The notes beneath the pieces were generated by a model, which saw nothing but the letters and a program-made list of their open reading frames with translations, searched no databases and had not been told where the DNA came from. Shown here piece by piece: positions 43,430-62,954 of a stretch of DNA of 64,000 nt. How positions within the stretch are numbered: the stretch's first letter is position 1; each line of letters opens with the position of its first letter. The DNA lies in IMG/VR virus record IMGVR_UViG_3300008952_000003, positions 1 through 64,000 of that record, one strand, 5' to 3'. Source of the DNA: a virus. The translations under genes were made by a program, and so were the position numbers.

Positions 43430-46400
43430 TGCCCATTTCCGACAAAAACAAGAAAACTCAGAAGAAAAAGAATCCAAACGCTGCCATTCCAGACTGGACA
43501 AAAATGTGTGATAAGGCGGCATTTTTTAATGAGAGGGATAACGAATATTCTGTTGTTATTTTCGCTGATGAAGAAGCCGAAGATGAGATATTATCATCTG
43601 CATTGTTTGAGCTTTATGATCAAGAGGGACTGACGAAAAAGATTACAGCCTCTGACGTTAAAAAATATATATCAAACAAAGATATTGAAATAAAAGACAT
43701 CTTTGTCCCAACGAAAAACAATCAAAGCAAGAAAATATTGTGCTCGATTCCATTTAAAAAATATCAAAAAATAAGCGAACAACTGGGAAAAAAAGATAAA
43801 ACAGTTCCAGAATCAGATCGCGCTTTTCAAGAAGAAGAAGAGAATAGTGGATATTTTGTGGAAATTTCAAGACAAGATTATGATAAATATTTCAATGGTC
43901 TGGAGAACATATTAACGAAAGTTGGCAAGGATTATGAGTTTGCATATCGCGCTGGAAAATATAATGTTCCAAACCTGAGATTTTTGAGCGAAATAAAAAA
44001 ACTTAAGATTTTTAAAAAACAATTGGGGGATTTTCTAAAGGATAATGATGTCTCCATGAAAGATAAATCCCTAGACAAAATTGGGCTTCTATACAAGTCA
44101 GACCCAAAAGAGACGTACAGTAATCTTGGTTCAATATGGTTCAAAAATAAGACACAACCATGGGAAAAGACAGAAAAAGGATTCAAGGCATTCTCAACAA
44201 AGAGTCCAGCAAATGATAAAACAACACTAGCTTTCGTTCTAAACATGCCAAATATCAATAGGAAATACTCTTCAGAGAATTCTCCACCCTTTAGTCAGTT
44301 TATCGAGGATTATGTATATCCATCTAGAAACCCCAAGGACACATCCTCGCCAACGCTGAGTTCGAATAATAATGCCGGATATCAGCAAACAACGCCTGGA
44401 AACGAAGTAAAGGGCTATCTGACGAACTTTGGGCAATCATTCAATGAAAGTATCTCACCCGAGTTTGATACTGGTTATACGTGGGAACAGAAGAAGAAAT
44501 TAGACAAGACCCTGAATGATCCGGCAGTCCTCCGTAGAAGAACTCAAGATTCCCTCAATCGTGTCATCAAGACAGTCGACCCAATAGTTGACAAGATTCA
44601 GGACGCGCTTGAGATGGCCGAAGATTTAGATGATTTATATACAAATATTCTCAACCCACTCGGCACAGAAGGCCTAGCAGCACTATTATCCGAGGGCATT
44701 TTAAAGAAAATAAAGTCACTACCACTAGACAAAGTGATGAAGCAGACAGTATCGTCGATCCTGGCAGTCATACCAGATGAACAATTATACGAAATATACT
44801 CAAGCACTATCGGTGGCGACTTTTTGAGTGACATTGCGAAGCAGATTGAGGAAATCTTCGTGGATATTGCATGGCCAGAATTACATCCGGATCTGCCAAT
44901 TCCAAATATTGATGATCTGGAAATCCCAAGCTTGGTTCGCAATGGGATATTTGATCCCCTCTCCCTCCCTGCAGATGTTTGTTTGGGAATCCCAGGCCTG
45001 CAAAAAAATAAAGATTTTGAAAGAATAAAAAAGACTTTTGTACACATAGTCGAAAGAGACCTAGTTCCCCCGGGGGACTTCGTAGATTTAATAGAAAAGA
45101 CCGGTACAGCCGCCGATAAAGATGTCATCAAAAAGATATTTAAATTTAACTTAAACTTGAATCCAAATTCATCCATCTCCAGGTCATCTCGTGCATCTTC
45201 CGGCCCATCTACGGATTCTTCCCGAGGCCGCGCCTCCTCCAGAAGGGGTGGTACTCGCAGCAAAAACAACACAGACTCTATAGATACAAAATCTCATTAT
45301 ATAAAGAATAGAACCCGAAAAAAAGCAAAGTTAAACGATGTGACGCTCCCGTACATACCGGAAATACCTTCTCTAAGTTTGGGTGATTTTGGCAAAATAG
45401 CCATAAATATAGCAGAATCGAAGCTAGAAAAAATCAGCATGAAGATAATAAAGGTTTTGCTGAAAAAGGTATTATCGGCAATTTTTGGAGGCGCCAATGG
45501 AGCCAGCCCGGATGATATTGTTGGCGCAAAGCACGATAAAGTAAAAAATATTTTAAAGAGAGATTTAACTCGACCAGGAGCATCTGACAAAGAGGTGAAT
45601 GAGTCTATTAACAAACTATTGGGATCTTTTTCTATTTGGGACCCGACGAAGAAGAAACCAACCGATAAAGATGTCGGAGATTTTATCGATTCTATTTCTA
45701 TGTCGCTGAGCAATCAGCAGATTATAGACCTTTTTAGTGGCACAGCGAACAATGAGGCCCTATGTCAGGTAAGGCAATCCATAAACAGTCTACCAAATAG
45801 CAATATAGCGGACTCTTTGTCGTCCGACGGAGACATAGATAATATGTTCTCCAGTCTCGGAACGCTCATTGATAGAAACGCACTTCAGGCTCAAGAAGAC
45901 ATAGATTCGGTGCTAAATTCTCCAAGAATAACCACCGATTTGTGCAGTCTCCCCTCTCAGATTGAGGTTGCCAACCGACTCAAAGCCGCCGCCCTAGCGA
46001 ACAAGGGCCTTTCTCCAGATGAGATAAATAATCAACTGCAGAAAGCGGAGGATCTTGCACTAGAGGACCTCGGGGACCTGGTGAAAGCCCTCGCCAGCCC
46101 TGAAAACTTATTGGCAAATTTGGGAGACATCCCGATAAAACAGACCCCTGAAGGTCCCGTCGTTTCTCCAATATCAAGCGATCCACGAAATCCAGATGAT
46201 GGTCTATATCCCATGGAAGATGAATCTACATCCAAAGCCATATCAGATACATACGAAAATTTATATAATTCTATGAATACTATTGCGATTTCTGATATGA
46301 CGGTTGGGAACCCAAGCAACATCACTAGTCGAGGATTTTTAGATATGGTGTTGGCATCAAAGAAGGGGCGCCCATTTTCGAAGATAGCTGATGATTTGAT

Positions 46401-48579
46401 GGTTGATGAGGAGTTTACATTGTTCGGGAAACCTTCCCTTCCGGATACAATTTCCAATTTAGGAGGAGAAGACGGGACGTTGGTTTCTAGTTCCTTTGAC
46501 ATTTTTCGCTCTTCGCCATATAGGATTAGTAGCTTGTATAGTGGCGAAAATAATTATGATTTGACTCTGCAGTATGAGCTTGGAGAAAATTTGTTTTTCA
46601 ATGGAAGTGATTACAAAGAAGAGAAAGAGGTGGTCGTTAGGTATGAAAAAGACAGCCAAGTTGATGACTTTGTAGGTGATTTCTCCTCCACGAAGCGCTC
46701 ACCTTCGGACATTTTTGGCGATTGGGTGTCTGAGATATGGAGTGATCATCTGGGTGAGGATCTGGACGCCTCCGTAAAAGCAAACGTATTATCCTCCATA
46801 AAAACATATTCCGAAGACTCTCTATATAAGAGTGTTGTTGGATCGATGATTAGAAAGATAACAAAAAGAATGAGAGACAACGAGCGAGCCTGGTCTCCCG
46901 GAAATCCGGCAGACGACGTAGGTAAGCCAGAGAGGATCTTTTTAGACGAAGATGCTTACGGAGAAGAATCCTTCTATATCGACTTCGCCCCGACTTCAGG
47001 ATTTAAAAATTGGGTACAAATTTATACAGAAGTCGCGCAAATGGAGATTCTTGGTGACAAGCCCCCATTGATAGACTTTAGAGATTTAGCATCTAAGAGT
47101 CAAGAATATTTTGATAATATGCCTGATGATCCGAGAATCTCTCTGCCAAATATTCCGAAAATTAAAGAATCGCCATTTTGTAGAATAAACACTCGCCTAA
47201 ATAACGCCGGATTAGCCGGACTGATGAAATCAACTATCAGAGTATATTTATACGAAGCCCTTCTAAAAGGGACGCCAGCATTTCAAATTTACGCGATGGA
47301 TAATGATAACTATCGCGATGTATTTGTCTCCTATATTGTCGACAAGGTGCTGGAAGGGGTCCTGGATGAGAGTAGGAAATCCACAAAACTTATTCCAGGA
47401 ACTCTAGGAAAGAAGGGGTATTATTACTTATTTCTGGAACAAGTTGTTCAAAGTTATTCAAACTTAACCAATCTTGGCCTAGAGGAGCTAGATGTTGACA
47501 CGGAGAAATCTCTAGAATCCATAAAGAAGAGTTTAAAATTCTGGGATCCATCGGGAAATCGCAACAATAAATTCAAAGAATTTCTTGATGAAAGATTGCC
47601 AGATATAAAAACAATAATATCGAAAATGGTGAAAGAAGAGATGGAAGTCGTCTTCACCAAAACTGAAAATATTTATGATCCAAAAGTCAAAAACATTGTT
47701 TCAGATATGGTCATAAAAGAGGATTGGATTTTTGGATCGGTAGATACTGGGGTGCCTATTTTCGTACCATCTTCTACTACCGATGACTATCTTGGCGATT
47801 TGGATTTTATTTTCGAGACAGATGAGAAGAAAAATGAAGAAAAAAGTAAATATTTTTATCCATTTGTTCTGGAAAAATATGTAAAATTGGTCAACAAGGA
47901 GACCGGAACAACAACAATAGAGAGTCCGTCAACCATCAATCCCCTAGAGATAGACAAGTTTGATACCTTTGCAGGCACTCGCATTTCGATGGTGATGTCG
48001 GCTGACTTCTCTTCGATTTTTGAAATATCTGAAATCGCACCACTCAATACTATACTCTCTTCAAAATTTGATAAGATAAAATCATTTATCATTGAGGGGA
48101 AAAAGCAAACATACTACGTCTTTCCTATGGTATTTGAGGAGCAAGCCGCTACCCTGGACGACCTCGCTAATCAGGATTTATATGAGGAATTGGCAAAGAA
48201 GATGCGAAACAATAGCGAGTTTAAGACTTTGTTCGAAAAATGCTTTCCAATCTCTGATATCTTGACTTACTTGACTATTTATGTAATAGAAAACTTCATC
48301 GAATCTTTAACCCCCAGAGACACTATCTTTCCATCTGCTTTTGGCCTTTGGAACGGAGAGGTCCTGGAGATGAGCAAGAAATATCTTAAATCAACGTCGC
48401 AACAGTTTTATTATGGAAGAACTTCTGAGTTTATTGAACAAATATCTGCCGAAGTGAAGCCTGACAAGAAGATTGGATCTGGAATTACTGGGGGAATTAT
48501 GAAATCAGCACTCAACGAACTTGGTCTTACGAGAAAAGAAAAAAGAAATTTAAGACAAAAGCCAGATGATTTAGAATAA
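43429..48579 (+). CDS. Giant structural protein, probably tail/baseplate
   Basis: 1716 aa, starting in a TAATG overlap. No enzyme motif stands out. A Ser/Arg-rich low-complexity segment at residues 578-618 (SRSSRASSGPS, RGRASSRRGG) separates a helical N-half from a longer second half. Repeated weak patterns of IPDWTK, PIPNIDDLEIPSL and SLPNIPKIKES suggest Pro-rich linkers. Size and location between hub and gp25-like genes suggest a baseplate or tail-length role. Not assigned to a family. Confidence 0.62.
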   Translation: MPISDKNKKTQKKKNPNAAIPDWTKMCDKAAFFNERDNEYSVVIFADEEAEDEILSSALFELYDQEGLTKKITASDVKKYISNKDIEIKDIFVPTKNNQSKKILCSIPFKKYQKISEQLGKKDKTVPESDRAFQEEEENSGYFVEISRQDYDKYFNGLENILTKVGKDYEFAYRAGKYNVPNLRFLSEIKKLKIFKKQLGDFLKDNDVSMKDKSLDKIGLLYKSDPKETYSNLGSIWFKNKTQPWEKTEKGFKAFSTKSPANDKTTLAFVLNMPNINRKYSSENSPPFSQFIEDYVYPSRNPKDTSSPTLSSNNNAGYQQTTPGNEVKGYLTNFGQSFNESISPEFDTGYTWEQKKKLDKTLNDPAVLRRRTQDSLNRVIKTVDPIVDKIQDALEMAEDLDDLYTNILNPLGTEGLAALLSEGILKKIKSLPLDKVMKQTVSSILAVIPDEQLYEIYSSTIGGDFLSDIAKQIEEIFVDIAWPELHPDLPIPNIDDLEIPSLVRNGIFDPLSLPADVCLGIPGLQKNKDFERIKKTFVHIVERDLVPPGDFVDLIEKTGTAADKDVIKKIFKFNLNLNPNSSISRSSRASSGPSTDSSRGRASSRRGGTRSKNNTDSIDTKSHYIKNRTRKKAKLNDVTLPYIPEIPSLSLGDFGKIAINIAESKLEKISMKIIKVLLKKVLSAIFGGANGASPDDIVGAKHDKVKNILKRDLTRPGASDKEVNESINKLLGSFSIWDPTKKKPTDKDVGDFIDSISMSLSNQQIIDLFSGTANNEALCQVRQSINSLPNSNIADSLSSDGDIDNMFSSLGTLIDRNALQAQEDIDSVLNSPRITTDLCSLPSQIEVANRLKAAALANKGLSPDEINNQLQKAEDLALEDLGDLVKALASPENLLANLGDIPIKQTPEGPVVSPISSDPRNPDDGLYPMEDESTSKAISDTYENLYNSMNTIAISDMTVGNPSNITSRGFLDMVLASKKGRPFSKIADDLMVDEEFTLFGKPSLPDTISNLGGEDGTLVSSSFDIFRSSPYRISSLYSGENNYDLTLQYELGENLFFNGSDYKEEKEVVVRYEKDSQVDDFVGDFSSTKRSPSDIFGDWVSEIWSDHLGEDLDASVKANVLSSIKTYSEDSLYKSVVGSMIRKITKRMRDNERAWSPGNPADDVGKPERIFLDEDAYGEESFYIDFAPTSGFKNWVQIYTEVAQMEILGDKPPLIDFRDLASKSQEYFDNMPDDPRISLPNIPKIKESPFCRINTRLNNAGLAGLMKSTIRVYLYEALLKGTPAFQIYAMDNDNYRDVFVSYIVDKVLEGVLDESRKSTKLIPGTLGKKGYYYLFLEQVVQSYSNLTNLGLEELDVDTEKSLESIKKSLKFWDPSGNRNNKFKEFLDERLPDIKTIISKMVKEEMEVVFTKTENIYDPKVKNIVSDMVIKEDWIFGSVDTGVPIFVPSSTTDDYLGDLDFIFETDEKKNEEKSKYFYPFVLEKYVKLVNKETGTTTIESPSTINPLEIDKFDTFAGTRISMVMSADFSSIFEISEIAPLNTILSSKFDKIKSFIIEGKKQTYYVFPMVFEEQAATLDDLANQDLYEELAKKMRNNSEFKTLFEKCFPISDILTYLTIYVIENFIESLTPRDTIFPSAFGLWNGEVLEMSKKYLKSTSQQFYYGRTSEFIEQISAEVKPDKKIGSGITGGIMKSALNELGLTRKEKRNLRQKPDDLE

Positions 48580-49018: not shown

Positions 49019-50815
49019 ATGGCAAAAAAGAAAACACCAATAAATTATACTAGTAGAGATTTTGAGTCGATAAAGAGAGACTTGGTTAATCATGCCAAAA
49101 GAAGTTACCCTTCTGTATATAGGGACTTTAATGAGGCTAGTTTCGGATCTTTGATGCTTGATACTGTTGCCTATATTGGCGATATAATGTCATTTTATTT
49201 GGATTATCAAGCCAACGAATCCTTTATGGATTCTGCAGTTGAATTCAAGAATGTAACCAGACACGCCAGGCAATACGGATACAAAGATAACGGATATCCA
49301 TCATCAACCGGAATAGTGGAATTGTATTTGACGGTCCCCGCAAATTCTACCGGTCTCGGACCAGACTTGCGATACGCTCCAATCCTAAAGAGGGATGCTG
49401 AGTTTTCTTCTAATGGGGGCGCACCCTATCTTTTGATAGAGGACGTTAATTTTGAGAATCCAAATAACGAAATTATTGTAGCTAAAGTAAATAATTCGAC
49501 AGGTTTGCCTACTTCCTATGCAATAAGGGCAAAAGGACGAGTGATATCTGGAAAAATAGTGGCAGAAAACTTTCAGCTAGGTTCATATCAGAGATTTAGG
49601 AGAGTATTTTTGTCTATGCCAAGAGTAGCAGAAGTTTTGGCCGTTTTCGATGCCGATGGAAATGAGTATTATGAAGTAGAACACCTCTCTCAGGATGTAA
49701 TCTATAAAGACGTGACAAACAGAAAATCAGATAATGACACTGTTCCTTCTTTGATTCGCCCTTTTTCGGTGCCAAGAAGATTCACCCTCGAAAGAGACGG
49801 CATAAGTAGCTTTTTACAGTTTGGGTATGGATCGCAAGATGAAGCATCTTCAGAAACAGATATTGCTGAACCGTCCAACGTAGTTTTGCAGCTAAATGGA
49901 AGAGGGTATATATCAGATTTTAATTTCGATCCCTCCAAACTCTTGGAGACTGATAAGTTTGGAGTCGCTCCGGTGAACACCTCTCTAAATGTAAAATATA
50001 GGATCAACAAGGTTGATAATGTGAACTCTCCTGTTGGAACTTTAGTGAATGTTGGAAGTACAAACTTTTCCTATAGAAATGTCCGCCAACTAAACACAGG
50101 CCTTATTCAACAAGTGAATAAGTCTCTGGAAGTATATAATCCGACACCTATCGTCGGTGACGTCTCCAATCCAACATCGGAAGAATTAAAGATACGCACC
50201 TTGAATGTTTTTGCAACACAAAACCGCGCCGTCACAAAAACTGATTACGAATCTATGGTTTATGCAATGCCAGCAAAGTTCGGAGCAATCAAGAGATGCA
50301 AGATAACAAGAGACCCAGATTCATTTAAGAGGAATCTAAATTTATATATTCTGGCAGAAGACTCAAATGGGAACTTGACTATGGCGAACTCCACACTAAA
50401 GGATAATCTCAAAGTGTGGCTAAATAATATTAAAATGATAAATGATACTATTGACATCATCGATGGAAAAATAGTAAATCTAGCTATTGATTTCAAGGTT
50501 ATCGCAGACCCAGATAAGAACAAATATGATGTTTTGACCGCCTGTGTCAACGCTCTTAAGAAGAAATTTAATCAGCCGCTCTTATTGGGAGAGTCATTTT
50601 ACATCACAGATATTTATAATATCCTAAATGATGTAGTCGGGGTTGTTGACACACAGGGTGCCAAGGTTACTATCAAAAATGGGGCACTGTATTCGGATAC
50701 TCGCTTTAATCTAAACGATCAGAAGTCCGCAGACGGAAGATATATAAAAGCCCCAGACAATGTTTCTTTTGAAATCAAGTTTGCTGATAAAGATATTAAA
50801 GGGACTATTAAATAA
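49019..50815 (+). CDS. 6: Baseplate wedge protein, gp6/J-like
   Basis: 598 aa. YTSRDFESIKRDLVNHAKR, then DFNEASFGSLMLDTVAYIGDIMSFYLDYQANESFM (cited by ends) and RHARQYGYK match the baseplate J/gp6 family, and the later AVTKTDYESMVYAMPAKFGAIKRCK segment is the conserved central motif. The protein would form the ring of the wedge. It is about the length of T4 gp6. No clear ribosome site is seen before ATG 49019, which follows an A-rich stretch. Confidence 0.85.
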   Translation: MAKKKTPINYTSRDFESIKRDLVNHAKRSYPSVYRDFNEASFGSLMLDTVAYIGDIMSFYLDYQANESFMDSAVEFKNVTRHARQYGYKDNGYPSSTGIVELYLTVPANSTGLGPDLRYAPILKRDAEFSSNGGAPYLLIEDVNFENPNNEIIVAKVNNSTGLPTSYAIRAKGRVISGKIVAENFQLGSYQRFRRVFLSMPRVAEVLAVFDADGNEYYEVEHLSQDVIYKDVTNRKSDNDTVPSLIRPFSVPRRFTLERDGISSFLQFGYGSQDEASSETDIAEPSNVVLQLNGRGYISDFNFDPSKLLETDKFGVAPVNTSLNVKYRINKVDNVNSPVGTLVNVGSTNFSYRNVRQLNTGLIQQVNKSLEVYNPTPIVGDVSNPTSEELKIRTLNVFATQNRAVTKTDYESMVYAMPAKFGAIKRCKITRDPDSFKRNLNLYILAEDSNGNLTMANSTLKDNLKVWLNNIKMINDTIDIIDGKIVNLAIDFKVIADPDKNKYDVLTACVNALKKKFNQPLLLGESFYITDIYNILNDVVGVVDTQGAKVTIKNGALYSDTRFNLNDQKSADGRYIKAPDNVSFEIKFADKDIKGTIK

Positions 50816-52305
50816 TGAGTATTAAAAGATATGTTGCGAACGCAGACAATACGATTACTAGCGCATTTAAATCAAATTTGAGGAATCGCGGCACTGATGC
50901 AAACATGGGCGCCTCCGATGTCCTAGAAACTTTCTCCATTTATGGGCAGGCCTCATCGGACTCAACGGAATTAACCAGGATTTTGATAAATTTTCCAGTA
51001 AACAAAATCTCAGCAGATCGATCGGCAGGAATAATTCCCGAAGTTGGAAATGTAAACTTTTATCTGAAAATGCACAACGCCGAACACAGTCAAACGACCC
51101 CCAGGGACTTGATTTTGAATGTTCAGGCAGTCTCTAGATCCTGGCAGGAAGGAACTGGCCTGGATATGGATGAGTACAAAGATGTTGTAGAGCCCGGAGA
51201 TATTGGATCCACATGGATGAGTGCTTCCAGCACAGAAGCCTGGACCAGGACTGGGGGAGATTATCATATTACGCCCGCATATCAACAAACATTCGATAAT
51301 GGAACAGAAGATCTCAGCATTGATATCACATCTGTTGTCGAAGAGTGGCTCGACGGCACAAAAGGCAGGTATGGCCTGGGTGTACACATCACTTCCAGCC
51401 AGGAGGCATACTACTCTGGATCCGCTGGGTCAGATTCTACTGACGGGGAATTAAATAATTTAGTAGGATCCAGAACAAGTTATTATACAAAGAAATTTTT
51501 TGGCAGAGGATCCGAGTTCTTTTTCAAGAGGCCGACAATTGAGGCTCGTTGGGACAGTTCGATCAAAGACGACAGAGGGAATTTCTTCGCCAGTAGTTCA
51601 TTATTGCCAGCAGGCGAAAATATAAGATCTCTATTCCTCTATAACGAGTTCAATGGCAGGCTTTTTGATTTGCCAGGACTCCCTACAGATACAGCGAGCG
51701 TGCGGCTATATACGACCGTGGGTGGCACTGAACAAATCGGCGCCGATATATCGGCCCCAAAGATATCAAGAGGGATATACGAAGCCTCCTTTGCAGTAGA
51801 CACTACTGCTAGTGTTTTGTATGATAGATGGTTCAACCCCACATTCACCGAGTGTTATCACACGGGAGCAGTGAAGATAAAGCAGCACAAGGCACACAAC
51901 TATAACCCATATCCAGCATATGTTACAAATATCACGAATTTAAGACCAATATACTACACACACGAAGCGCCAAGATTCAGGCTTTATGTGAGAGAAAAAG
52001 AATGGTGCCCAACTATTTATACAATAGCAAACAAGGCTAATGACACTCTCACCATTCAGAGCGCTTCCTATCAGATTCACAGGAATATAGATGATCTCAT
52101 AATCATCCCTTTCGGGACTGGAAGTGAAAAGAGCACAGGAATGTCCTTTGATGTGAGTGGGAATTATTTTGACTTAAGCATGGACCTTTTTGAACCTGGA
52201 TATTCATATGCAATAAAGGTTGCTTATTATAGCGACACAGTACAGAGTCACATTGAACAACCTTATGAGTGGAAATTTAGAGTAGAAAATCTGGAAACAC
52301 AATGA
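50815..52305 (+). CDS. DNRLRE-like baseplate or fibre protein
   Basis: 496 aa. The first half has DNTITSAF, RNRGTDANMGASDVLE, TRILINFPVNKI, LNVQAVSRSWQEGTGLDMD and SIDITSVVEEWLDGT, the pattern of DNRLRE-type beta domains that occur in cell-surface proteins. The second half is beta-rich. The gene overlaps the 3550-aa gene by four bases. Probably part of the baseplate periphery or a fibre; unusual in phage. Confidence 0.65.
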   Translation: MSIKRYVANADNTITSAFKSNLRNRGTDANMGASDVLETFSIYGQASSDSTELTRILINFPVNKISADRSAGIIPEVGNVNFYLKMHNAEHSQTTPRDLILNVQAVSRSWQEGTGLDMDEYKDVVEPGDIGSTWMSASSTEAWTRTGGDYHITPAYQQTFDNGTEDLSIDITSVVEEWLDGTKGRYGLGVHITSSQEAYYSGSAGSDSTDGELNNLVGSRTSYYTKKFFGRGSEFFFKRPTIEARWDSSIKDDRGNFFASSSLLPAGENIRSLFLYNEFNGRLFDLPGLPTDTASVRLYTTVGGTEQIGADISAPKISRGIYEASFAVDTTASVLYDRWFNPTFTECYHTGAVKIKQHKAHNYNPYPAYVTNITNLRPIYYTHEAPRFRLYVREKEWCPTIYTIANKANDTLTIQSASYQIHRNIDDLIIIPFGTGSEKSTGMSFDVSGNYFDLSMDLFEPGYSYAIKVAYYSDTVQSHIEQPYEWKFRVENLETQ

Positions 52306-55300
52306 CAATAAGAGATCTTTTCGATAGCGCAAATTCTTATAAAATCTTATCTAATGAAAATCTTGAAAATCTCGGAGCGAATGTTGAATCTTCGGGAAAC
52401 ATGCAACAAAGATTGGAAGAAAAAGATAGATTCGTTCCAATAGTAAATTTTAGATATCCTGAAAACTTTGCTAGATACGGGAAAGCAGAAAAATATTATA
52501 AAGATTCTCTTAGTAGGATTTATAATGATTATCCATATGATGGATCACTAAAAGAGCGAGCCCAGTTTAGAAATGAATCTTCCTATCTGGACCTCTATCT
52601 TTTAGATAACAAGTATCCGAGATCGACAGGTTATTCGATCTTTTCTCCAAATGGCTGGGGAACACAAGTAGACTCCGCTTCTTTCGGCGGCGATCCGACA
52701 AACATCATCGCCAAACCGAGCACTTTAGAATATATTCAGGTAATCGGCGGGCCCCACGAATCACCATCTGAATTCATAAGTAGTTCTCTGAGAAGCCAGT
52801 TTGAACATGCGAATAAGTATGATTCTTCAACCCACCGCGAATCAAATTTAAAATGTGATTTTGACGAAGGCGTTTCAATTGAATTTTGGATGAAAAAATC
52901 CACCTTGATGACCGGAAGTACCTCTTTCGAGGTCCCAGCTATGCTATCAAACGAAGATAGTGGATCAGTTCAGATATTGTTGTCGACCAGAGACGCTGCC
53001 GACCCCACACAAACCAGATTTACAACCGTATTCACATCTGGCTCAATCGTCGGCTTCGATGATACCGCTCCGCTAACAAACACAGAGATCCTAGACGATA
53101 AATGGCATCATTATGCATTCACTTTTCAGAATTCTGCAAGCGTCGTTGAAATAAAAACTTACTACGATGGGGCCTTGGTCCAACAAGCACCTGCGTCTTA
53201 TCCGCTAGGCGTCCCATCGACTATTAGTGAGATTACCGGCGCCCTAAAATTAAACGTCGGAGCCTCCAGGAAGGCTTTATATAACTTGGCGCCCGGCGTA
53301 AATGTAGACTGGCCAGAAGATGGCTGGGGAAAACTCTCTGGGTCACTCGATGAATTCCGCTACTGGAAAACAGCAAGGACATCGGAAGAAATAGGAAAAT
53401 ATTGGTTCACACAGTATGGTGGAGGAACAAACAGGGATGATGCTAATGTGGACTTGGGCGTCTATTTGAAGTGGAACGAGGGGATAACCGGAATCAACTC
53501 TATCGACTCGACGGCGCTTGACTATTCTGGGAGGATATCCAACGGAAGTTGGACAGGATACACTCCAGAGGCCCGATCCACTGGCTCTGCCATGGACGAA
53601 TACCTGAAAAAAGAGAGTGAATTTAGAGATCCAATAATATATTCGTTTCACCCAAGGGTAGTAAGTCTTGAAAATTCACTAATAGAGTCAGGCTCAGCAT
53701 ATGATTTAGAGAATAACGCTTCAATATATAATTCGATTCCATCGTGGATTACAGAAGATGACGAAATAGGATCCGAGGACGTATTAAATCTCACACAGAT
53801 ATTAGCAAGCTATTTCGATACTCTGCAGTTGCAAATGGAAGCACTCCCTGCCCTAAAAGATAAAACATATAATGATCCAAATATAATAAAGCCAAAAACA
53901 TTTAGCAGCCGCCTATTAGAATCTCAGGGTTTCATAGCGCCAGAGATCTTTGCCGATGTTGATGCATTGGCCCAAATAATGAACCGCGATGACGACAGGA
54001 AATATGAACTAGATCTGACAGATATTAAAAATACGATATATCAGAATGTTTACAATAACTTGATCAACATATATAAATCGAAGGGAACTGAAAAGGGTTT
54101 TAGAAATATTGTTCGATGCTTCGGCGTTGATGACGAGCTAATACGATTAAATATTTATGGAAATAATGTAAGCTATGACTTAAAAGATAACTATAGAACG
54201 ACCACTCTGAAAAAGAGATATGCAGATTTTAATCACACTGATAGATTTTCAGCCACTGTCTATCAACAAACAGCTAGCGGAAATCCAAATACAGTTTCAT
54301 TTATTAGTGCCTCTTCTGATAGTGAATATGTTCCCTTTACGTTAGAGGCTGAAGTGATCTTTCCCAAGAAGTTGGGAAAGGATAATCCTCTCTATTTTGA
54401 TACCCCATTTTTATCTTCTTCTCTTTTTGGATTCCACGGCGGCATCGATGATATAAATTTTGCATGGCCCCCACTAGCAGACGATAGAAACTTACAGGTA
54501 TACGCTGTTCGAGAAGAGTTGGAGTCTAAAAATGTATTCTTCCAACTTAGAAATAGAGATGCATCAATCAATTTAACGACTGACATATTTGAGGATGTAT
54601 ATGATAATCAAAAATGGAATTTCGCCCTAAGATACAGATTTCCAGTCACGGGGGTAGATTTGGTCAGCGGCTCCGATACTGCAACACCAATCGTGGAGCT
54701 TTATGGGGTAAATTCTGATGCTGGTATAGTAAGTAACGAATTCCTCCTGACAGCCTCAGTCGCTAGTTCTTTCGGGACTTCCCCAAAGAGGATATACCTG
54801 GGAGGACATAGGCTCAATTTTACTGGGTCGATTATCGATCATGCTGACACAAAAATATCATCTTTGAGGTACTGGACGAGTTATCTAGATAATGATGTTA
54901 TCAAAGTTCACGCACGAGATCCTTCAAACTATGGCACCAAGTCCCCATACGAGAGTACATATTTATATATTACATCGCTGACCGGAGTCGCAGTCCCCCA
55001 GGCAGAAACACTAGCTTTGAACTGGGATTTCTCAACAGTAACTTCATCGGATGGCGGAATATCTGGAGTCCCAACCATATCAGATGCTGGATACACGGTG
55101 CAGGATTTCTCTTCTGGGTCTCTGAATCTGATCGATCGATACAAGTGGCTTGGAAATATAGTAAAAAGACAACATACTGGTCGAGGAGATTTCCTCCTCC
55201 CAGATGACAAAAAGGTTGTAGATGTAAAATATGTATACAGCGGAAAACAAGTCGCCCCAGAAGTTATTCAGTCTTCTGATGCGATCAGTGTTCTTGGCGA

Positions 55301-58300
55301 ATCTGACATATATTTTAATAGAGATACTCGCCCCGTAAACTTCTTTTACGCACTTGAGAAAAGCATGTATCAGACAATCTCTGATGAGATGTTGAATATT
55401 TTCTCTACAATCGTTGATTTTAATAACCTAATTGGAGATCCAGTTAACAGATATCGACAAAAATACAAATCCATGGAAAAATTGAGACAACTCTTTTTTG
55501 AAAGAGTTCAAAATACTCCGGATTTAGATAAATATGTCGAATTCTATAAGTGGATAGATGCCTCTCTAAACATAATGCTTCAGCAGCTTGTGCCAATGTC
55601 TGCAGATGTCTCGAAAGAGATCAGAACTATGATAGAGAGCCACATTCTTGAGAGAAATAAATATTGGACAAAATTCCCAACTCTAGAGATGGTGCCGACC
55701 GACCCGGAATCAGGGGCCAAGGGAATAAATGAGCTATTATATGATTGGAAAAGAGGCCACCACCCAGTAAACAATCAGCAAGATACGAATTGTCCATGGT
55801 GGAAGCAGAGAGCAGATAGGGTTGGCGATACGATCGCCTCTCCGGTCATATCTTCTGGCGACCCAAAGGTTGACGCCGGAAGGCAAAAGATACTTGACGT
55901 ATCAGTGAGTGCCCTTAACCGATCTTATTCGACCCCCTATAGACTGGGAACCGCCCAATCCAAAGTGCTGAAAGGGGGCTCAAATGTCCCAGGCGCGAAA
56001 AAGCAGAATTTTTTAAGAACTACTTTAAATTTTGGCACCACTAACGGCCTCCTCCTACTTGATGGCCCAAAATATGTTATTGACTGCGTAGAGGATGATG
56101 TATATCAACTAAACTATCGCTCATTTGTGAAAAAGATCCCATTTACTGATGATTATACTACAAATAACTTTAATTTCTTGGCACCCGGCACTCTCGTCGG
56201 ATTCCCAGATAAAGGATCAGTACCAACGGCAGATTATCACCAGGATTCGTATGGTCCAGATATAGAGGTGCCCGCTCAGAGCCCCTTTACGGAGGCCCAC
56301 GTTGGAGGTTTGCAATTCCGACACGCTCCAGCAAATGACGGGCTTGATGATGCAAATAGTAGGCCCGAAGGGTGGAAGGTGGACTTTAGCCCCAGTGGCG
56401 TAATTCTTACACATCCAGATGTTGACAAGCCTCGTGCAATGTATTATCGCGACGAGACAGCGAAAAGACCGCTAAATATCAGAAATATCAAGGGCTCATA
56501 TGGAAATTACACGAAAGATCACCAAGTTGTTCAATCTGCTGGTAGGTATATCAACAATCATGCATGGGTCCAAGCTGGAGGGTGGGATTTAAATCCTGCT
56601 GGCGCGCCGTCAATTTATGTAGCTGGTCTGATAGATATCCCAAGGATACAAAGAGGAAGACACGAATCTACTATAGTGTCGAGATTTTCAGCTCCAGGTG
56701 GTCCAGAGACCATGGGAGACTCAAATGGTGGCCCCGGATTAGATAGATATTCGGCAGAACTTTCATTCAATAACGACCTAAACGCCAGAAACTACACAGT
56801 TAGGAGCATAGAAAACAAGCTTTTGACATCTCACGTCAATCAATTCGGATATTTTTCGAATACTGGAGATATTGTTGATGGACCCTCATCTTCGGTTAAT
56901 CCACTAGACTATTCTGGGACTGGATCAATATATCAAGTCAATAGGAATATAAGAAGAAGACTAGAATTAAGCGGAACTGCTGTAATAACTGGATCACTTT
57001 ATGACAATTATTGGGTAAATCACCCAATCCCGCAAAGTGATTTGCAATATGCGTGGATAAATAGCTCATACGAGTCGGTAGATCCATCTGGGCTTGGATA
57101 CTGGCACGAAGCCATGTTTGAATTTACAACAAGAGAAAAGGTTGTTCTATCTGAGTCATTTACATCAAGCTTGGATCCGACAAAATGGACATCACAATCA
57201 GTCACGATGAGACAGAGTGATGATTCAGATAACTGGATAGCACGAATGGGGACAAACTTGGGAGTTGGATCAGATCCGAGATTGTTGACAACTGCAAAAG
57301 ATTATAATCTTCCTTTTAGGGTCGACTATTCCTATGCAAGGGGAGGCTTTCAGAACCCTACAAGTCGGATGTACCTGGAGTTTGATGGAAATTCTCTGTT
57401 GTATGGTTCTGCAGCCGCAGTTAGTGCGTCTGATGGGAGAAATTCTATTTCATTTTGGCTCAAGTTTCAGGGCCCCATCGGATCCGATAGGAGAATTATG
57501 TGTACTGGAAATTCTCAAGATAAAAGACTATACCTTGATCTTGTCACTCCCACTAACTACAGCCTACGGTACATCCGCCGATTCACTGGCACCGATAAGT
57601 CATTCCGCGTTACTTTGACTGATCTTTATGATTCCGACTATTTTTTAGAAAATTTTGTACATATATGTTTGGTGGATGATGAGAATGATCCTGTATTTGA
57701 GCCAGTGCTTTATGTCGATGGAATGAATGCCACAACTTTTAGTTCACCATCTTTCTTCAGCGCCACAGGAACACCAGAAATCATTCTTCCATCTGAACGG
57801 TTTCATATTGGTGAAAATTTCTTGGGAACTTCCACCGAGGCCTTTTCCGGCTCCATGGACTCAATAAGTTGGTTCAACAAGTTATTAACAGAAGCACAGG
57901 CGCAAGAGTTATACAACAACGGAACACCAGGCGCTGTCCAAAATGTCTCTTTTTGGCCAACTAGCATAACGGCGTCAAATCAAGTTCATTATTGGCAATT
58001 GGGTGATGCAAATAATGACGAAATTCTCCTTGGCGCGCCCCCGGTATCACCGAGCGTTTATGATGTGGGAGAAATCCCAGGCGCTCATGACGAAGACTTG
58101 TATGCCTGGGGTGCGGGAGATATGCAATTCCTGGAATATCCTGGCTACAATATGGCGTCACCTCAAGTGACTAACGATGAAACAATGTCTTTTGAAGTCA
58201 GCTTGGATTCAGGCGCCACCTGGGTAACGGCAAGTGTTCTTGCTGATCTCGGTGATCTCGCCGGAAATAATGTCGGATTTCTCACAAAAAATCGAACTTT

Positions 58301-61300
58301 CCTACAAAATACCCCTGGCCAAACGGCTAGAATAAGATTTAGACAAGATAATTTTTCAAACCCCAAGAGAGACCACTGGGCACTTAATGAAGTTACAATA
58401 TCAGAAATAACATATGTAGACCCAGTAACTTTCTCGCCTTACGGTGATTTTGTTTCTAGATTGTGGACCGGTGGCCCAAATATTAGATTCGGCGCAAACT
58501 TAGAGGAAATCGCAGACACCCCGCTTTTCGAGGTGTATGTCCCAACTGTATATAATGGCTTAAACTACAATGTTTATGAGCCAATCGATACTGAAAACTC
58601 TCAAATCGGATATCCACTTTCAACCGATATAGGCGATTATCTGAATGAAGCCCTTGTACCAGGTTTTAGAAATAAGGTTGGAGACGTTCCCGCGCAACGC
58701 CTTGGAAGATCCAGCATGCTAAACGCCATTCTTCTAAAAAGAAACGGCCCATATCAATATCCCAACTGGAAGCAAATTAGGACGGGCGAGCATGCTCTAG
58801 CAAGATACTACAGAAACAACAACATTATCACTGTCACAAGAGAGCCCGGCCGAAGCTTGACACTAGATGGACAAGCTTATATAGAGCCATTTGGAGATAC
58901 ATTTTCCTTCAAGGAGCCAGCAGTTAATTCGAAATATGCTCCTGTTGAGTTCAGTCTCGGCATGAGAATGGAAACAATACCAGAAAATGGTGATCCATAT
59001 TATATTGTGCGCCCAGTGACAATCAAGACAAGCTATGGAAACAACTTGGGTTATTTTGATAGCCCCAAACTAAATAGGCTGGCAAAATTTGATGACGAAA
59101 ATGATGGTCTTGAAGAGCAGCCATACGATGTTATTAAAGATATGTATTTAAATGGCGCACTGAATAAGTTAGAAAGCCCAGTATACAGTCTGGTTAGCTT
59201 GAAATACGCAGAAAAAGTATATCCAGCAGTAAAAAACCTATATTCAAAACAAGTCCGCGAACGAATTGATTTTTCTAATACTTTCTGGCGCCAATCAAGA
59301 GTTGATAGAAACACGCTTGGTTCTGAAAAGTTCGGAGGAACAAACTCTCAAGGATTTGTTCGCGCCCAAAGCGCCTGGGCCCTAGATGGCCGCACTGATT
59401 TTACAAGAAACGCCAATGTTGCTAGAAACTATGATAGCCCCACCTCGACAAACGGAGAGTTGCAAAACGAATATACGATGGTGTGGAGAGAGAATCACAT
59501 CGTCGCCCCAGCTTTTGCTGAGGATCTCTTCCCGACAGTCATATACAGTAGGAGACAGGATCCAAATACTTTGTATTCAGTGGTGTCTCCAAATGGAATG
59601 GAGTTCATAAACACGAATTCAACAAGCTCTACATATGTCGCACAGATAGAATTCCAATCAGATTTCTCCAACTATCCAGGAACAGCATCCCATGGTTATA
59701 TTAACTCTGCAGTCGGCGATGCAAAATGGCAATCCGGAGAACTGGCTGGGAAAATTATCGATGGAAGTTTCGCATCTGCATCTACTACACCATATTACGA
59801 TGACTATGACAGATTCAATGAAGAACTGAGATTGAAAAACAAGGATTACTCAATAGTTCCAGAGTTCAGAATCAGCGAACACATGGATTTTTATTTCGAT
59901 GAGCATGGTGGTGATTTTCTAACAAACAACAAGAATATGCTTTCTATCTTTGGGTCACCGTCAGCAAGTTCTGGTCAGGAGGGTTTTTACAAAACTTACT
60001 CTCACGGCGATTTCATGAAGTTCTTTGAAGTCATCGATTCTGACCACAAAGAAATAAGTGATTTAGAGAAGACATTGACACTAAAGTGTAGTGCTTTGAA
60101 GAAGTTTGTACCTTATGATGGATTTTATCCAGCAGAAAGATGCCTAGAGATAGCTAATAAATTTTCTAGTTCATATTCGCAGTATGTGACCTCAAGTGGG
60201 AACTTTGAGTTCAAGGATACTCAAATTAGAATGAGACCTCTCATGGCACCATTTATGGCCCCTGGGATACTATTTAACACTATCAAGTCGGGTATCGCCG
60301 TAGATTATCCAGTATACACTGGCTCATATATTGCGGCGCGATATATACTGAAAAACTCAACCCCCGGAATACACGGTGGTGACACCTATTTAGAAGAAGA
60401 TTTTGTTTCTGGCAGCGGAGGAACATTCGAGAGAGGCGTGGACACAGCAGTGTGGGATTTTGATACTTCCAATGACGGGCCAGATGTCAGAGAAAATGTC
60501 GCACAAACAAACTGGATTTTCAGATTCAGGGGGACGCACTCGCCAGACAAGAGGTATTTAATAACTCAAGATGAATTTGAGACTCCATTCAGAGTGACTT
60601 TTAAATATTGCAGGGGAGACTTTGAAAATGGTCTAACTCCGGGCTATGATCTAGAGCGCCCGGAAGTTAACGATGATTTCATGTTTGGTTATAGCGTTGA
60701 TGGTGGCACAACATGGCTGACCCAATCTGTTTTTACCTCTGGATCTACCAAATCTGGAGATGACTTAGTTGCCCTCGGAGGTTCCGGATTCTTAGAGCAT
60801 ACGGCATCTTTCCCAGCAGGCTCCGGGTCTGTCAAATTGATGTGGAAGCAGATAGATTGGACTGGTGGAAATGCTGATAACTGGGCCATCGACGATGTGT
60901 CGATTGATGCCTATTTCCACCCAACTCCTTACTATGGACTCGGCCCAAAAAGCATAGATAAAGTTGGGTGGGATTACAGAGTTCCATTCGAGGCCGTATT
61001 ATATCCGGAAATGACAAATGGATTAGATTTCGTAGATATGGAAGTGAATCCACAAATTGCCCTGTCAAGCTCTCTTACGTTCGGAGTCATCATCGATCCA
61101 AGCATGCGGACAAGATTGGTTGCCCCATCTACTGATAATTTGTATAAACTCATGATCAATAATTTCTTAGCAGAAACGGTTGAGTTTTTTCTGAAAAATG
61201 GTCGCCTTTCATCATTTAGATCAAACGCGAGTGATACTGGATTCGAATTCAAGTCAGGATCCTACGGAATGAGGGTAAAGATCCGAAGAAGTATGAACAA

Positions 61301-62954
61301 AGAGAGAAAACACCCGACAGATTTCACACTTCCAGTTGATTGGTATGCCGATGAAGGGCTGCATGAAACCGTAACGATGTACAGTAAGCCATCTTCTTAT
61401 GGACCTCCTATGATGGGGTCGAATATTATTTATGATTCTGGAAGCTATGGTACCTCAAGGGATCGTCAACAAAACTCAGATAGTTTATTTGGAAGAAATC
61501 CCTCATTTACACCACCGTATTACGACGGAGAGTCATGGATTGACATAGTATATTCATCGGCTGTCGACAGGGTGTTGACTCTGGAAGAATTTTTTATGTC
61601 AGCTAGCGTCAATACTCAAAGAATACCAAACAATGAGGCCGCGTGGCCCAATATTCCAGGGGCGATCGGGGCTGTTGTCGCCGATGAATTTCCAATGCAC
61701 AGAAAGAATGCAGATGATTACGCTATGCAATTAAATTCGTCGATCAATCTATTTGGAAAGGCCTTCGACCGCTCAGTCACTTCGGATATCGAATCGTCAG
61801 CTAGGTGGACTATTGAACCTAAGATGGAGGTCCCGGTGTTGAATTTCGGAGATAAAACAAGGCGCCCCCTAACGTTTGAAAATATAGCCCTTCCGACTGG
61901 TGGAGACCCGCTAGACAACTCCGATCGTTTGGACGGATTTCTTGGAAAAACTGCCACACCGATTGGCATGTGGCATCAGTTTGGTTTAATCCCGGAAAAA
62001 GATGAAGGAATACATTTGAGTATAGAAGATATTCCTGTTGATTTTCTCAACAAACCAACATTAAATTCCTTTTATGTGGGCGGCCCAAATATGAAATCAC
62101 TCATCGATATAGTTGGGTTCAACAAGGGCGCCTCAAGAAAGATTGGGAAAGTGGCTGAATCAAAAACAGTTCACGAAGCAGTAGTCGCGATTCCGTACAT
62201 TATTAAGGACGGAGAGAGAAAATTCTTCAAAGTTTGCGGGAATTTAATCAAAAATGCACGCTCAGTTCTGGGAGATGGCACCGAAGCTGTTTCGGAAGAG
62301 CGCCCTGGCGACTCTATTATTGACATGGTATCAAAAATGAAGAGGTATATACTCCCTCCGAGAATGGATTTCGTAGCAAACGATAGTGTGGATCCATTTG
62401 CAATATACATATTTGAATTTTCGCACACTTTTGATCAAAATGATCTATCTTATATCTGGCAAAACACAATGCCAACCACGGGAACCTCCTTTGAGGAGGC
62501 TACAGCAGAGCTTTCCCACAAAATAATCAACAAAGAATTGCTAGAAACATTCAAAGATAAAATAAAATGGCTAGTATTTAAAGCAAAGCAAAGAGGCAAC
62601 AACAATTACTTCAGTCTCGTAAGTGGCCAGTCAGAAGAGGGTAGTGAACAACACAAATATAGTTACAATTGGCCTTATGATTACTTTTCAATGGTAGAAT
62701 TTATAAAAATAGAGTCCGAAATAGAGTATTCGACCGAACAAGCGATTGATATTAATGATTCGTTTGCAGAAGTCAACGAATCACTCCAAAAGGGAGTTAG
62801 ATCCACAAAACAACTCATACCATCACAAGAAAAAGACAGGGCATATACCTCTGAACTGACGATGACAGAGGCAAAAACTGAAAAAAGAGAGAAAGTAAAA
62901 GAAGACAGAGAAAAGAGAAAGATAAGGGGAGCCTTTAAGGCGAAGGACGATTAA
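52302..62954 (+). CDS. 3550-aa multidomain baseplate/tail protein with LamG and repeated beta-sandwich modules
   Basis: A giant protein. ConA/LamG-like domains lie at about residues 184-350 (VSIEFWMKK, WHHYAF, DEFRYWKTA), 677-852 (LEAEVIFP, IYLGGHRLNF, SSLRYW) and 1690-1855 (SISFWLKF, DSISWF). A helical segment near 1030-1130 (KSMEKLRQLFFERVQ) follows the second. A module ending WALNEVTI (about 1612-2030) is repeated near 2698-2868 (WAIDDVSI); the third LamG lies inside the first copy. The C-terminal 40 residues are Lys/Glu/Arg-rich. It probably forms a large fibre-like baseplate arm that binds surface glycans. Confidence 0.7.
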   Translation: MTIRDLFDSANSYKILSNENLENLGANVESSGNMQQRLEEKDRFVPIVNFRYPENFARYGKAEKYYKDSLSRIYNDYPYDGSLKERAQFRNESSYLDLYLLDNKYPRSTGYSIFSPNGWGTQVDSASFGGDPTNIIAKPSTLEYIQVIGGPHESPSEFISSSLRSQFEHANKYDSSTHRESNLKCDFDEGVSIEFWMKKSTLMTGSTSFEVPAMLSNEDSGSVQILLSTRDAADPTQTRFTTVFTSGSIVGFDDTAPLTNTEILDDKWHHYAFTFQNSASVVEIKTYYDGALVQQAPASYPLGVPSTISEITGALKLNVGASRKALYNLAPGVNVDWPEDGWGKLSGSLDEFRYWKTARTSEEIGKYWFTQYGGGTNRDDANVDLGVYLKWNEGITGINSIDSTALDYSGRISNGSWTGYTPEARSTGSAMDEYLKKESEFRDPIIYSFHPRVVSLENSLIESGSAYDLENNASIYNSIPSWITEDDEIGSEDVLNLTQILASYFDTLQLQMEALPALKDKTYNDPNIIKPKTFSSRLLESQGFIAPEIFADVDALAQIMNRDDDRKYELDLTDIKNTIYQNVYNNLINIYKSKGTEKGFRNIVRCFGVDDELIRLNIYGNNVSYDLKDNYRTTTLKKRYADFNHTDRFSATVYQQTASGNPNTVSFISASSDSEYVPFTLEAEVIFPKKLGKDNPLYFDTPFLSSSLFGFHGGIDDINFAWPPLADDRNLQVYAVREELESKNVFFQLRNRDASINLTTDIFEDVYDNQKWNFALRYRFPVTGVDLVSGSDTATPIVELYGVNSDAGIVSNEFLLTASVASSFGTSPKRIYLGGHRLNFTGSIIDHADTKISSLRYWTSYLDNDVIKVHARDPSNYGTKSPYESTYLYITSLTGVAVPQAETLALNWDFSTVTSSDGGISGVPTISDAGYTVQDFSSGSLNLIDRYKWLGNIVKRQHTGRGDFLLPDDKKVVDVKYVYSGKQVAPEVIQSSDAISVLGESDIYFNRDTRPVNFFYALEKSMYQTISDEMLNIFSTIVDFNNLIGDPVNRYRQKYKSMEKLRQLFFERVQNTPDLDKYVEFYKWIDASLNIMLQQLVPMSADVSKEIRTMIESHILERNKYWTKFPTLEMVPTDPESGAKGINELLYDWKRGHHPVNNQQDTNCPWWKQRADRVGDTIASPVISSGDPKVDAGRQKILDVSVSALNRSYSTPYRLGTAQSKVLKGGSNVPGAKKQNFLRTTLNFGTTNGLLLLDGPKYVIDCVEDDVYQLNYRSFVKKIPFTDDYTTNNFNFLAPGTLVGFPDKGSVPTADYHQDSYGPDIEVPAQSPFTEAHVGGLQFRHAPANDGLDDANSRPEGWKVDFSPSGVILTHPDVDKPRAMYYRDETAKRPLNIRNIKGSYGNYTKDHQVVQSAGRYINNHAWVQAGGWDLNPAGAPSIYVAGLIDIPRIQRGRHESTIVSRFSAPGGPETMGDSNGGPGLDRYSAELSFNNDLNARNYTVRSIENKLLTSHVNQFGYFSNTGDIVDGPSSSVNPLDYSGTGSIYQVNRNIRRRLELSGTAVITGSLYDNYWVNHPIPQSDLQYAWINSSYESVDPSGLGYWHEAMFEFTTREKVVLSESFTSSLDPTKWTSQSVTMRQSDDSDNWIARMGTNLGVGSDPRLLTTAKDYNLPFRVDYSYARGGFQNPTSRMYLEFDGNSLLYGSAAAVSASDGRNSISFWLKFQGPIGSDRRIMCTGNSQDKRLYLDLVTPTNYSLRYIRRFTGTDKSFRVTLTDLYDSDYFLENFVHICLVDDENDPVFEPVLYVDGMNATTFSSPSFFSATGTPEIILPSERFHIGENFLGTSTEAFSGSMDSISWFNKLLTEAQAQELYNNGTPGAVQNVSFWPTSITASNQVHYWQLGDANNDEILLGAPPVSPSVYDVGEIPGAHDEDLYAWGAGDMQFLEYPGYNMASPQVTNDETMSFEVSLDSGATWVTASVLADLGDLAGNNVGFLTKNRTFLQNTPGQTARIRFRQDNFSNPKRDHWALNEVTISEITYVDPVTFSPYGDFVSRLWTGGPNIRFGANLEEIADTPLFEVYVPTVYNGLNYNVYEPIDTENSQIGYPLSTDIGDYLNEALVPGFRNKVGDVPAQRLGRSSMLNAILLKRNGPYQYPNWKQIRTGEHALARYYRNNNIITVTREPGRSLTLDGQAYIEPFGDTFSFKEPAVNSKYAPVEFSLGMRMETIPENGDPYYIVRPVTIKTSYGNNLGYFDSPKLNRLAKFDDENDGLEEQPYDVIKDMYLNGALNKLESPVYSLVSLKYAEKVYPAVKNLYSKQVRERIDFSNTFWRQSRVDRNTLGSEKFGGTNSQGFVRAQSAWALDGRTDFTRNANVARNYDSPTSTNGELQNEYTMVWRENHIVAPAFAEDLFPTVIYSRRQDPNTLYSVVSPNGMEFINTNSTSSTYVAQIEFQSDFSNYPGTASHGYINSAVGDAKWQSGELAGKIIDGSFASASTTPYYDDYDRFNEELRLKNKDYSIVPEFRISEHMDFYFDEHGGDFLTNNKNMLSIFGSPSASSGQEGFYKTYSHGDFMKFFEVIDSDHKEISDLEKTLTLKCSALKKFVPYDGFYPAERCLEIANKFSSSYSQYVTSSGNFEFKDTQIRMRPLMAPFMAPGILFNTIKSGIAVDYPVYTGSYIAARYILKNSTPGIHGGDTYLEEDFVSGSGGTFERGVDTAVWDFDTSNDGPDVRENVAQTNWIFRFRGTHSPDKRYLITQDEFETPFRVTFKYCRGDFENGLTPGYDLERPEVNDDFMFGYSVDGGTTWLTQSVFTSGSTKSGDDLVALGGSGFLEHTASFPAGSGSVKLMWKQIDWTGGNADNWAIDDVSIDAYFHPTPYYGLGPKSIDKVGWDYRVPFEAVLYPEMTNGLDFVDMEVNPQIALSSSLTFGVIIDPSMRTRLVAPSTDNLYKLMINNFLAETVEFFLKNGRLSSFRSNASDTGFEFKSGSYGMRVKIRRSMNKERKHPTDFTLPVDWYADEGLHETVTMYSKPSSYGPPMMGSNIIYDSGSYGTSRDRQQNSDSLFGRNPSFTPPYYDGESWIDIVYSSAVDRVLTLEEFFMSASVNTQRIPNNEAAWPNIPGAIGAVVADEFPMHRKNADDYAMQLNSSINLFGKAFDRSVTSDIESSARWTIEPKMEVPVLNFGDKTRRPLTFENIALPTGGDPLDNSDRLDGFLGKTATPIGMWHQFGLIPEKDEGIHLSIEDIPVDFLNKPTLNSFYVGGPNMKSLIDIVGFNKGASRKIGKVAESKTVHEAVVAIPYIIKDGERKFFKVCGNLIKNARSVLGDGTEAVSEERPGDSIIDMVSKMKRYILPPRMDFVANDSVDPFAIYIFEFSHTFDQNDLSYIWQNTMPTTGTSFEEATAELSHKIINKELLETFKDKIKWLVFKAKQRGNNNYFSLVSGQSEEGSEQHKYSYNWPYDYFSMVEFIKIESEIEYSTEQAIDINDSFAEVNESLQKGVRSTKQLIPSQEKDRAYTSELTMTEAKTEKREKVKEDREKRKIRGAFKAKDD

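What the first reader, a model, noticed from the sequence alone, without database searches (positions are those of the whole stretch)
57140..60910. LamG domain inserted inside a repeated module of the giant tail protein
Module 2 (PFRVTFKYCRGDFENG, then GYDLERPEVNDD, DGGTTW, WAIDDVSI) runs without a break. In module 1 the matching parts PFRVDYSYARGGFQN and GYNMASPQVTND, DSGATW, WALNEVTI are split by about 250 residues that form a LamG domain. This is direct evidence of duplication followed by domain insertion.
Basis: seen in the sequence. Interest (0 to 1): 0.6.

Follow-up and report, generated by a model that had tools for sequence, protein, structure and literature searches.

The report
Lectin cassette inside phage baseplate domain
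In a giant baseplate-linked protein of a large phage (relatives point to a Bacteroidota host), a sugar-binding-type (LamG) domain with sharply defined ends sits inside a second, reelin-like domain, and the same LamG unit is also found inside the neighbouring baseplate gene of related phages, so these phages appear to plug ready-made binding domains into the loops of existing domains.

Summary
The 3550-aa protein (52302-62954) has two copies of a reelin-subrepeat-B-like jelly roll. Module 2 (aa 2695-2870) is continuous. Module 1 (1613-2036) is split by 262 residues (1686-1947) that form one complete LamG unit. Its two halves match module 2 colinearly (3e-10, 4e-7).

'Insertion' is well supported. 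Uninterrupted reelin-B domains occur in about 90 Bacteroidota sequences and at other sites of the same phage protein family (L253, L231). The insert is also end-to-end homologous (1e-19) to a LamG cassette that splits the neighbouring baseplate gene in about 11 relatives, while about 140 homologs of that gene lack it.

'Duplication then insertion' is only partly supported. A tree puts modules 1 and 2 as sisters and the insertion on the module-1 stem. But L011 has module 1 with LamG and no module 2, L012 has neither, and other reelin-B copies sit at other scaffold sites. Modules 1 and 2 may therefore be separate arrivals.

The wider picture is a conserved scaffold with plug-in sites for LamG and reelin-B domains, including LamG nested in LamG. 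A binding role is inferred, not shown. New variant of known phage domain mosaicism.

The parts
52302..62954 (+). giant baseplate-linked structural protein, 3550 aa
   Evidence: ORF; second gene after a baseplate wedge subunit; 80% identical ortholog L007; about 80 fetched relatives share its core and most whole ones its scaffold
52857..53393 (+). N-terminal LamG domain, present in nearly all family members; in several relatives it is itself split by a second LamG
   Evidence: Pfam PF13385; family profile and nested cases
56469..57101 (+). scaffold segment c1, left flank of plug-in site A
   Evidence: conserved across family
57138..57356 (+). module 1, N-terminal half of the reelin-B-like jelly roll (aa 1613-1685)
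   Evidence: blastp to module 2; positions 3-86 of the phage reelin-B profile, E 1e-25 (profile built from these and sister sequences)
57357..58142 (+). inserted LamG cassette (aa 1686-1947), 786 bp; Pfam-recognised core 57423-57899, then a conserved tail
   Evidence: Pfam; end-to-end homology to the cassette in the neighbouring gene of relatives; sharp drop in conservation between phages inside it
58143..58409 (+). module 1, C-terminal half of the reelin-B-like jelly roll (aa 1948-2036)
   Evidence: Pfam PF21471 positions 53-127; blastp to module 2
60384..60911 (+). module 2, continuous reelin-B-like jelly roll (aa 2695-2870), at plug-in site B
   Evidence: Pfam PF21471; reelin repeats are top PDB fold matches
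50815..52305 (+). neighbouring conserved baseplate-region protein (496 aa); here without cassette; in relatives a LamG cassette sits after residue about 201-211 (window position about 51415-51447)
   Evidence: 150 homologous ORFs compared; cassette mapped
49019..50815 (+). baseplate wedge subunit (gp6-like)
   Evidence: PHROGs 219 and 6

Best explanation
The protein is a giant baseplate-associated protein with a conserved scaffold and several sites that accept extra domains. At site A (between c1 and c2) a reelin-B-like jelly roll was gained. Into one of its loops, between the strand ending at FRVDYSYARGG and the next strand, a complete LamG unit of about 240-260 residues was inserted in frame. 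The same LamG unit also sits in the interior of the adjacent upstream baseplate protein of related phages, so one cassette has been shared between interior sites of two neighbouring genes. Shown by sequence: the nesting, the cassette ends, the sites without it, and the fast divergence of the LamG core while both flanks stay conserved. Inferred: the LamG works as a glycan- or surface-binding head presented by the jelly roll, since LamG/ConA-like folds have their two ends close together (general knowledge, not tested here) and can sit in a loop without breaking the carrier; phages change binding by swapping or diversifying such heads while the baseplate scaffold stays fixed.
For: Colinear split homology. 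Pfam LamG and Reelin-B. Insert aligns end to end with cassettes in the upstream gene of L014, L178, L182, L035 and L033 (E 1e-19 to 1e-12). A cassette profile finds full copies only at these two interior sites, in about 11 contigs plus window and L007. About 140 upstream-gene homologs lack it. Uninterrupted reelin-B domains in about 90 Bacteroidota sequences and in L253 and L231. Clean sites without module 1 in L012 and without module 2 in L011 and L012. Window versus L007: flanking jelly roll 89% and 78% identical, LamG core 38%. Nested LamG in LamG in six contigs. LamG is associated with jumbo-phage tail fibres and called a lectin/adhesion fold (PMC7824862).
Against: No binding was tested. 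The structure model of module 1 is poor (mean pLDDT 42), so the fold of the carrier around the insert is inferred from sequence and from module 2. No phage with module 1 lacking LamG at site A was found, so that site's history rests on homologs at other sites. Only three contigs carry module 1. dS is saturated, so positive selection in the LamG could not be tested.
Confidence: 0.8

Rival explanations
1. In-gene duplication exactly: one reelin-B module was copied within this gene before L011 split off, LamG then entered copy 1, and L011 later lost copy 2.
For: Modules 1 and 2 are sisters in the trees (98/90 with the two other phage copies included). LamG is on the module-1 stem only.
Against: Needs a loss of module 2 in L011, which has an ordinary short linker there. 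Modules are only about 33% identical, and module 2 is 38% identical to the L253 copy at another site.
Confidence: 0.4
2. Independent arrivals: modules 1 and 2 are two separate acquisitions of reelin-B domains from a shared phage/Bacteroidota pool, landing at two of several plug-in sites.
For: Presence/absence pattern (L011 only module 1; L012 none; L231 inside c3; L253 before c1). A module 2 + L253 grouping is not rejected (AU p 0.29).
Against: Best tree makes modules 1 and 2 sisters (98/90); both occur together in two phages.
Confidence: 0.45
3. LamG inside the jelly roll is ancestral and module 2 lost it.
For: L011 has module 1 with LamG and no module 2; a copy of module 1 could have lost LamG precisely.
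Against: All other reelin-B domains seen are uninterrupted; module 2 nested within module 1 is rejected in the fullest tree (AU p 0.029), weakly or not elsewhere (0.046, 0.31).
Confidence: 0.08
4. The LamG and reelin-B pieces are structural spacers or decoration of the baseplate, not receptor-binding heads.
For: The protein lies in a baseplate gene cluster; no binding data exist.
Against: The LamG core diverges far faster than its flanks and the inserts come and go between close relatives, as expected of surface-facing, host-interacting parts.
Confidence: 0.25

Closest known systems
Reelin subrepeat B (Pfam PF21471), as in the reelin protein and Bacteroidota proteins
   Same: Sequence profile match of both modules; reelin repeats are top fold matches for the module 2 model
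   Different: Sits singly in a phage baseplate-linked protein, and module 1 carries a LamG domain inside; no interrupted copy was seen elsewhere
LamG / Laminin_G_3 ConA-like lectin domain (PF13385)
   Same: Profile match above cut-off
   Different: Here part of a 230-260 residue cassette with an extra conserved tail, placed in the interior of two different carrier proteins
LamG domains of jumbo phage tail fibres (PMC7824862)
   Same: Large phages, tail/virion proteins with ConA-fold lectin domains
   Different: The passage read reports presence only; nesting inside another domain is not mentioned there
Domain mosaicism in phage receptor-binding and tail proteins (PMC10684548)
   Same: Shuffling of domains among tail proteins, linked by the authors to the arms race with hosts (abstract)
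   Different: Here insertion is inside folded domains, with the same cassette ends in two adjacent genes
Immutovirus protein immuto35A_161 (Flavobacterium phage)
   Same: Shares the core (aa 460-643) and the position shortly after a baseplate wedge gene
   Different: Only 1265 aa, with none of the LamG or reelin-B parts and no match to the other scaffold segments

Membership tests
Pfam Reelin_subrepeat-B (PF21471) | score above the curated cut-off | tested here: met
   Module 2 28.1 bits against 27; whole protein 41.3; module 1 alone 22.6, just below, with only its C-half matched
Pfam Reelin_subrepeat-B (PF21471) | reelin-type jelly-roll fold | tested here: inconclusive
   Module 2 model is low confidence (pLDDT 52) but its best PDB matches are reelin repeats, E 1.5e-4, Z about 10; module 1 model too poor
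LamG / Laminin_G_3 (PF13385) | score above the curated cut-off | tested here: met
   30.9 bits against 27.6
LamG / Laminin_G_3 (PF13385) | glycan or protein ligand binding | not testable with these tools
   needs protein
Nested domain insertion | carrier halves are colinear with uninterrupted homologs on both sides of the insert | tested here: met
Nested domain insertion | insert exists as an independent unit elsewhere | tested here: met
Diversity-generating retroelement target | reverse transcriptase in the phage | tested here: not met
   No RVT_1 match in the 193-kb record, which may be a fragment

The most novel reading that the evidence does not exclude
The LamG cassette is a genuinely portable unit that moves in frame, with fixed ends, between interior loop sites of adjacent baseplate genes by some dedicated or strongly favoured recombination route, giving these phages a plug-in system for binding heads.
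Probability: 0.2. Interest if true: 0.75.

Novelty: new variant of a known kind. Interest (0 to 1): 0.52.

Why it matters
Domain shuffling in phage tail proteins is well known. Here the same lectin-type cassette can be caught inside two different carriers in neighbouring genes, with empty sites, uninterrupted homologs and repeated LamG-in-LamG nesting available for comparison. That makes it a tractable natural series for asking how large structural proteins accept whole domains in loops and how phages might change binding without touching the baseplate scaffold. It also defines a large, unnamed family of giant phage proteins (no PHROG or NCBIfam match for those tested).

Tried and rejected
Phage GenBank search with the 1341-aa module region: no match. 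PDB sequence search with module 2: nothing or a chance nanobody hit. Reelin-B pattern scans with alignment A3: only the L011 contig, none in genomes; a second alignment led by the L091 domain worked. AlphaFold2 of module 1 with five sequences was too poor to show the nesting; its top Foldseek rows are unrelated large proteins at TM-score under 0.2, while the laminin LG5 row (1qu0) and the reelin row (2e26, 76 columns) agree with the sequence. Base composition of the insert is like its surroundings and no exact repeat longer than 7 bp was found at its two ends, so there is no mark of recent transfer or transposition. Diversity-generating retroelement considered: no reverse transcriptase found. 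dN/dS in the LamG: dS saturated. Shared carrier at site A in other phages considered: their site-A LamGs are not flanked by detectable reelin-B halves.

Full report
What was checked. The window is part of a 193-kb virus record. The ORF 52302-62954 encodes 3550 aa and lies two genes after the start of a gp6-like baseplate wedge subunit (49019-50815, PHROG 219/6). Blastp of module 1 against module 2 gives two colinear matches, 3e-10 and 4e-7, separated in module 1 by the insert. Pfam names the two parts: the repeated module is Reelin_subrepeat-B (PF21471) and the insert Laminin_G_3. With a profile made from reelin-B domains of Bacteroidota, the two halves of module 1 match positions 6-81 and 94-170 and the LamG lies between them (the N-half is weak, E 0.004, in that profile and strong in the phage profile, which was built partly from the same sequences).

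Is it an assembly accident? No. L007, from another metagenome, has the whole protein at 80% identity with the same layout, and L011 has module 1 with LamG, interrupted only by an ambiguous base and a frameshift.

Conservation. Between window and L007 the jelly-roll halves are 89% and 78% identical, the LamG core 38%, and the LamG tail 79%. The N-terminal LamG is also more variable (61%) than the scaffold around it. dS is saturated, so this shows fast divergence, not proven positive selection.

The family. A core segment (aa 460-643) finds at least 249 relatives in viral contigs (80 kept). They share a scaffold (N-terminal part, N-terminal LamG, core, c1-c5) with variable material between. No PHROG or NCBIfam model describes the members tested. 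Immutovirus phages of Flavobacterium share only the core. The gap between c1 and c2 (site A) is 19-93 residues in most relatives but 160-490 in a subset; where a LamG sits there in other phages, the flanks show no reelin-B. The gap between c3 and c4 (site B) is mostly 20-106, and 216-217 in window and L007 where module 2 sits.

Empty sites. L012 (core 74% identical) runs from c1 to c2 with a short linker, so it lacks module 1 and its LamG, and it lacks module 2; L011 has module 1 with LamG and no module 2. Among 50 records searched with PF21471 only window, L007 and L011 matched. Later scans found two more reelin-B copies in the family, both uninterrupted and at other places: L231 within c3 and L253 before c1.

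The insert is a cassette. A LamG tree groups the inserts of window, L007 and L011 and puts next to them the LamGs of the gene directly upstream in other phages (FastTree, distances only). Alignment shows homology over nearly the whole insert (window insert residues 4-258 against L014 residues 206-441, E 1e-19), including a tail D-x-I-x-LG-T/A-PP...S-x-Y/F-D...LYA-x-G-x-G outside the Pfam domain. The upstream gene has 150 homologous ORFs, many from the same contig fetched twice; nearly all whole ones are 470-535 aa and colinear with the window's 496 aa, while L014, L033, L035, L178 and L182 (and further contigs among L252-L262) carry the cassette after residue about 201-211. So the ends of the unit, defined independently in two unrelated carriers, agree. 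The three phages with module 1 lack the cassette in the upstream gene, and L014 (cassette upstream) lacks module 1; sampling is too clustered to call this exclusive. The upstream carrier may be a disaggregatase-type repeat (L014 120-210, E 0.016, below cut-off), which is only a hint.

Nesting is recurrent. In L013, L053, L062, L069, L070 and L085 the N-terminal LamG is itself split by a complete LamG, for example L053: profile 2-91, then 2-164, then 82-163; some of these contigs are close to each other.

Order of events. Reelin-B domains of about 30 Bacteroidota-type sequences and the phage copies give trees in which module 1 (window, L007, L011) is one clade, sister to module 2 (98/90 with L253 and L231 included; 99/93 for the module-1 clade). 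Since every other copy is uninterrupted, the LamG entered on the module-1 stem, after its split from module 2. Trees with module 2 inside module 1 are rejected at p 0.029, 0.046 or not (0.31). Long branches make all this moderate evidence. Whether the module 1/2 split was a duplication in this gene is open: module 2 is 38% identical to L253 and 33% to module 1, and a module 2 + L253 group is not rejected (p 0.29).

Structure. Module 2 modelled with five sequences has low confidence (pLDDT 52, pTM 0.55), yet its top solved matches include reelin repeats first (Foldseek E 1.5e-4; VIA Z about 10, with Elapor1 tied and gingipain adhesin, meprin/MAM and Eph domains close behind). The insertion point falls in the loop between model strands 74-84 and 104-109.

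Function. Inference only: LamG domains of jumbo phages are described as lectin-type domains associated with tail fibres (PMC7824862), and domain shuffling in receptor-binding and tail proteins is linked by its authors to the arms race with hosts (PMC10684548). The most likely role is a surface- or glycan-binding head carried on a jelly-roll pedestal. Likely hosts are Bacteroidota, from the Flavobacterium phage relatives and the reelin-B kin; this is also an inference.

Verdict. Observation confirmed; insertion well supported; duplication in this gene plausible but not shown. The finding extends to a family-wide habit of placing LamG cassettes inside other domains.

Noticed in passing
window 50815-52305; L014, L033, L035, L178, L182, L252-L262: Neighbouring baseplate gene carries the same LamG cassette at one interior site in about 11 relatives; other relatives have non-LamG inserts at residues about 139 (L069, L085) and 77 (L190).
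   Followed up: yes
L053 7838-17296 (aa 181-619); also L013, L062, L069, L070, L085: N-terminal LamG domain of the giant protein is itself interrupted by a complete second LamG.
   Followed up: partly
L231 7860-13958 (aa 910-1095); L253 7589-12682 (aa 1335-1522): Uninterrupted reelin-B domains at two further scaffold positions (inside c3; before c1).
   Followed up: partly
window 12990-14513 (LamG at 13215-13637) and G000:C1 78938-81615: Further LamG domains in other genes of the same phage, several in a row outside the window.
   Followed up: no
L091 7833-11453 (LR745206.1): A 635-kb record labelled uncultured phage encodes a repeat-rich protein like Bacteroidota surface proteins that starts with a reelin-B domain; the record may be bacterial or carry a host gene.
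   Followed up: no
L011 13384-17339 and 17257-18834: Giant gene broken by frameshifts and an ambiguous base in the L011 contig, probably sequencing or assembly error.
   Followed up: no
window 43429-48579: 1716-aa protein before the baseplate wedge gene with no Pfam or PHROG match.
   Followed up: no
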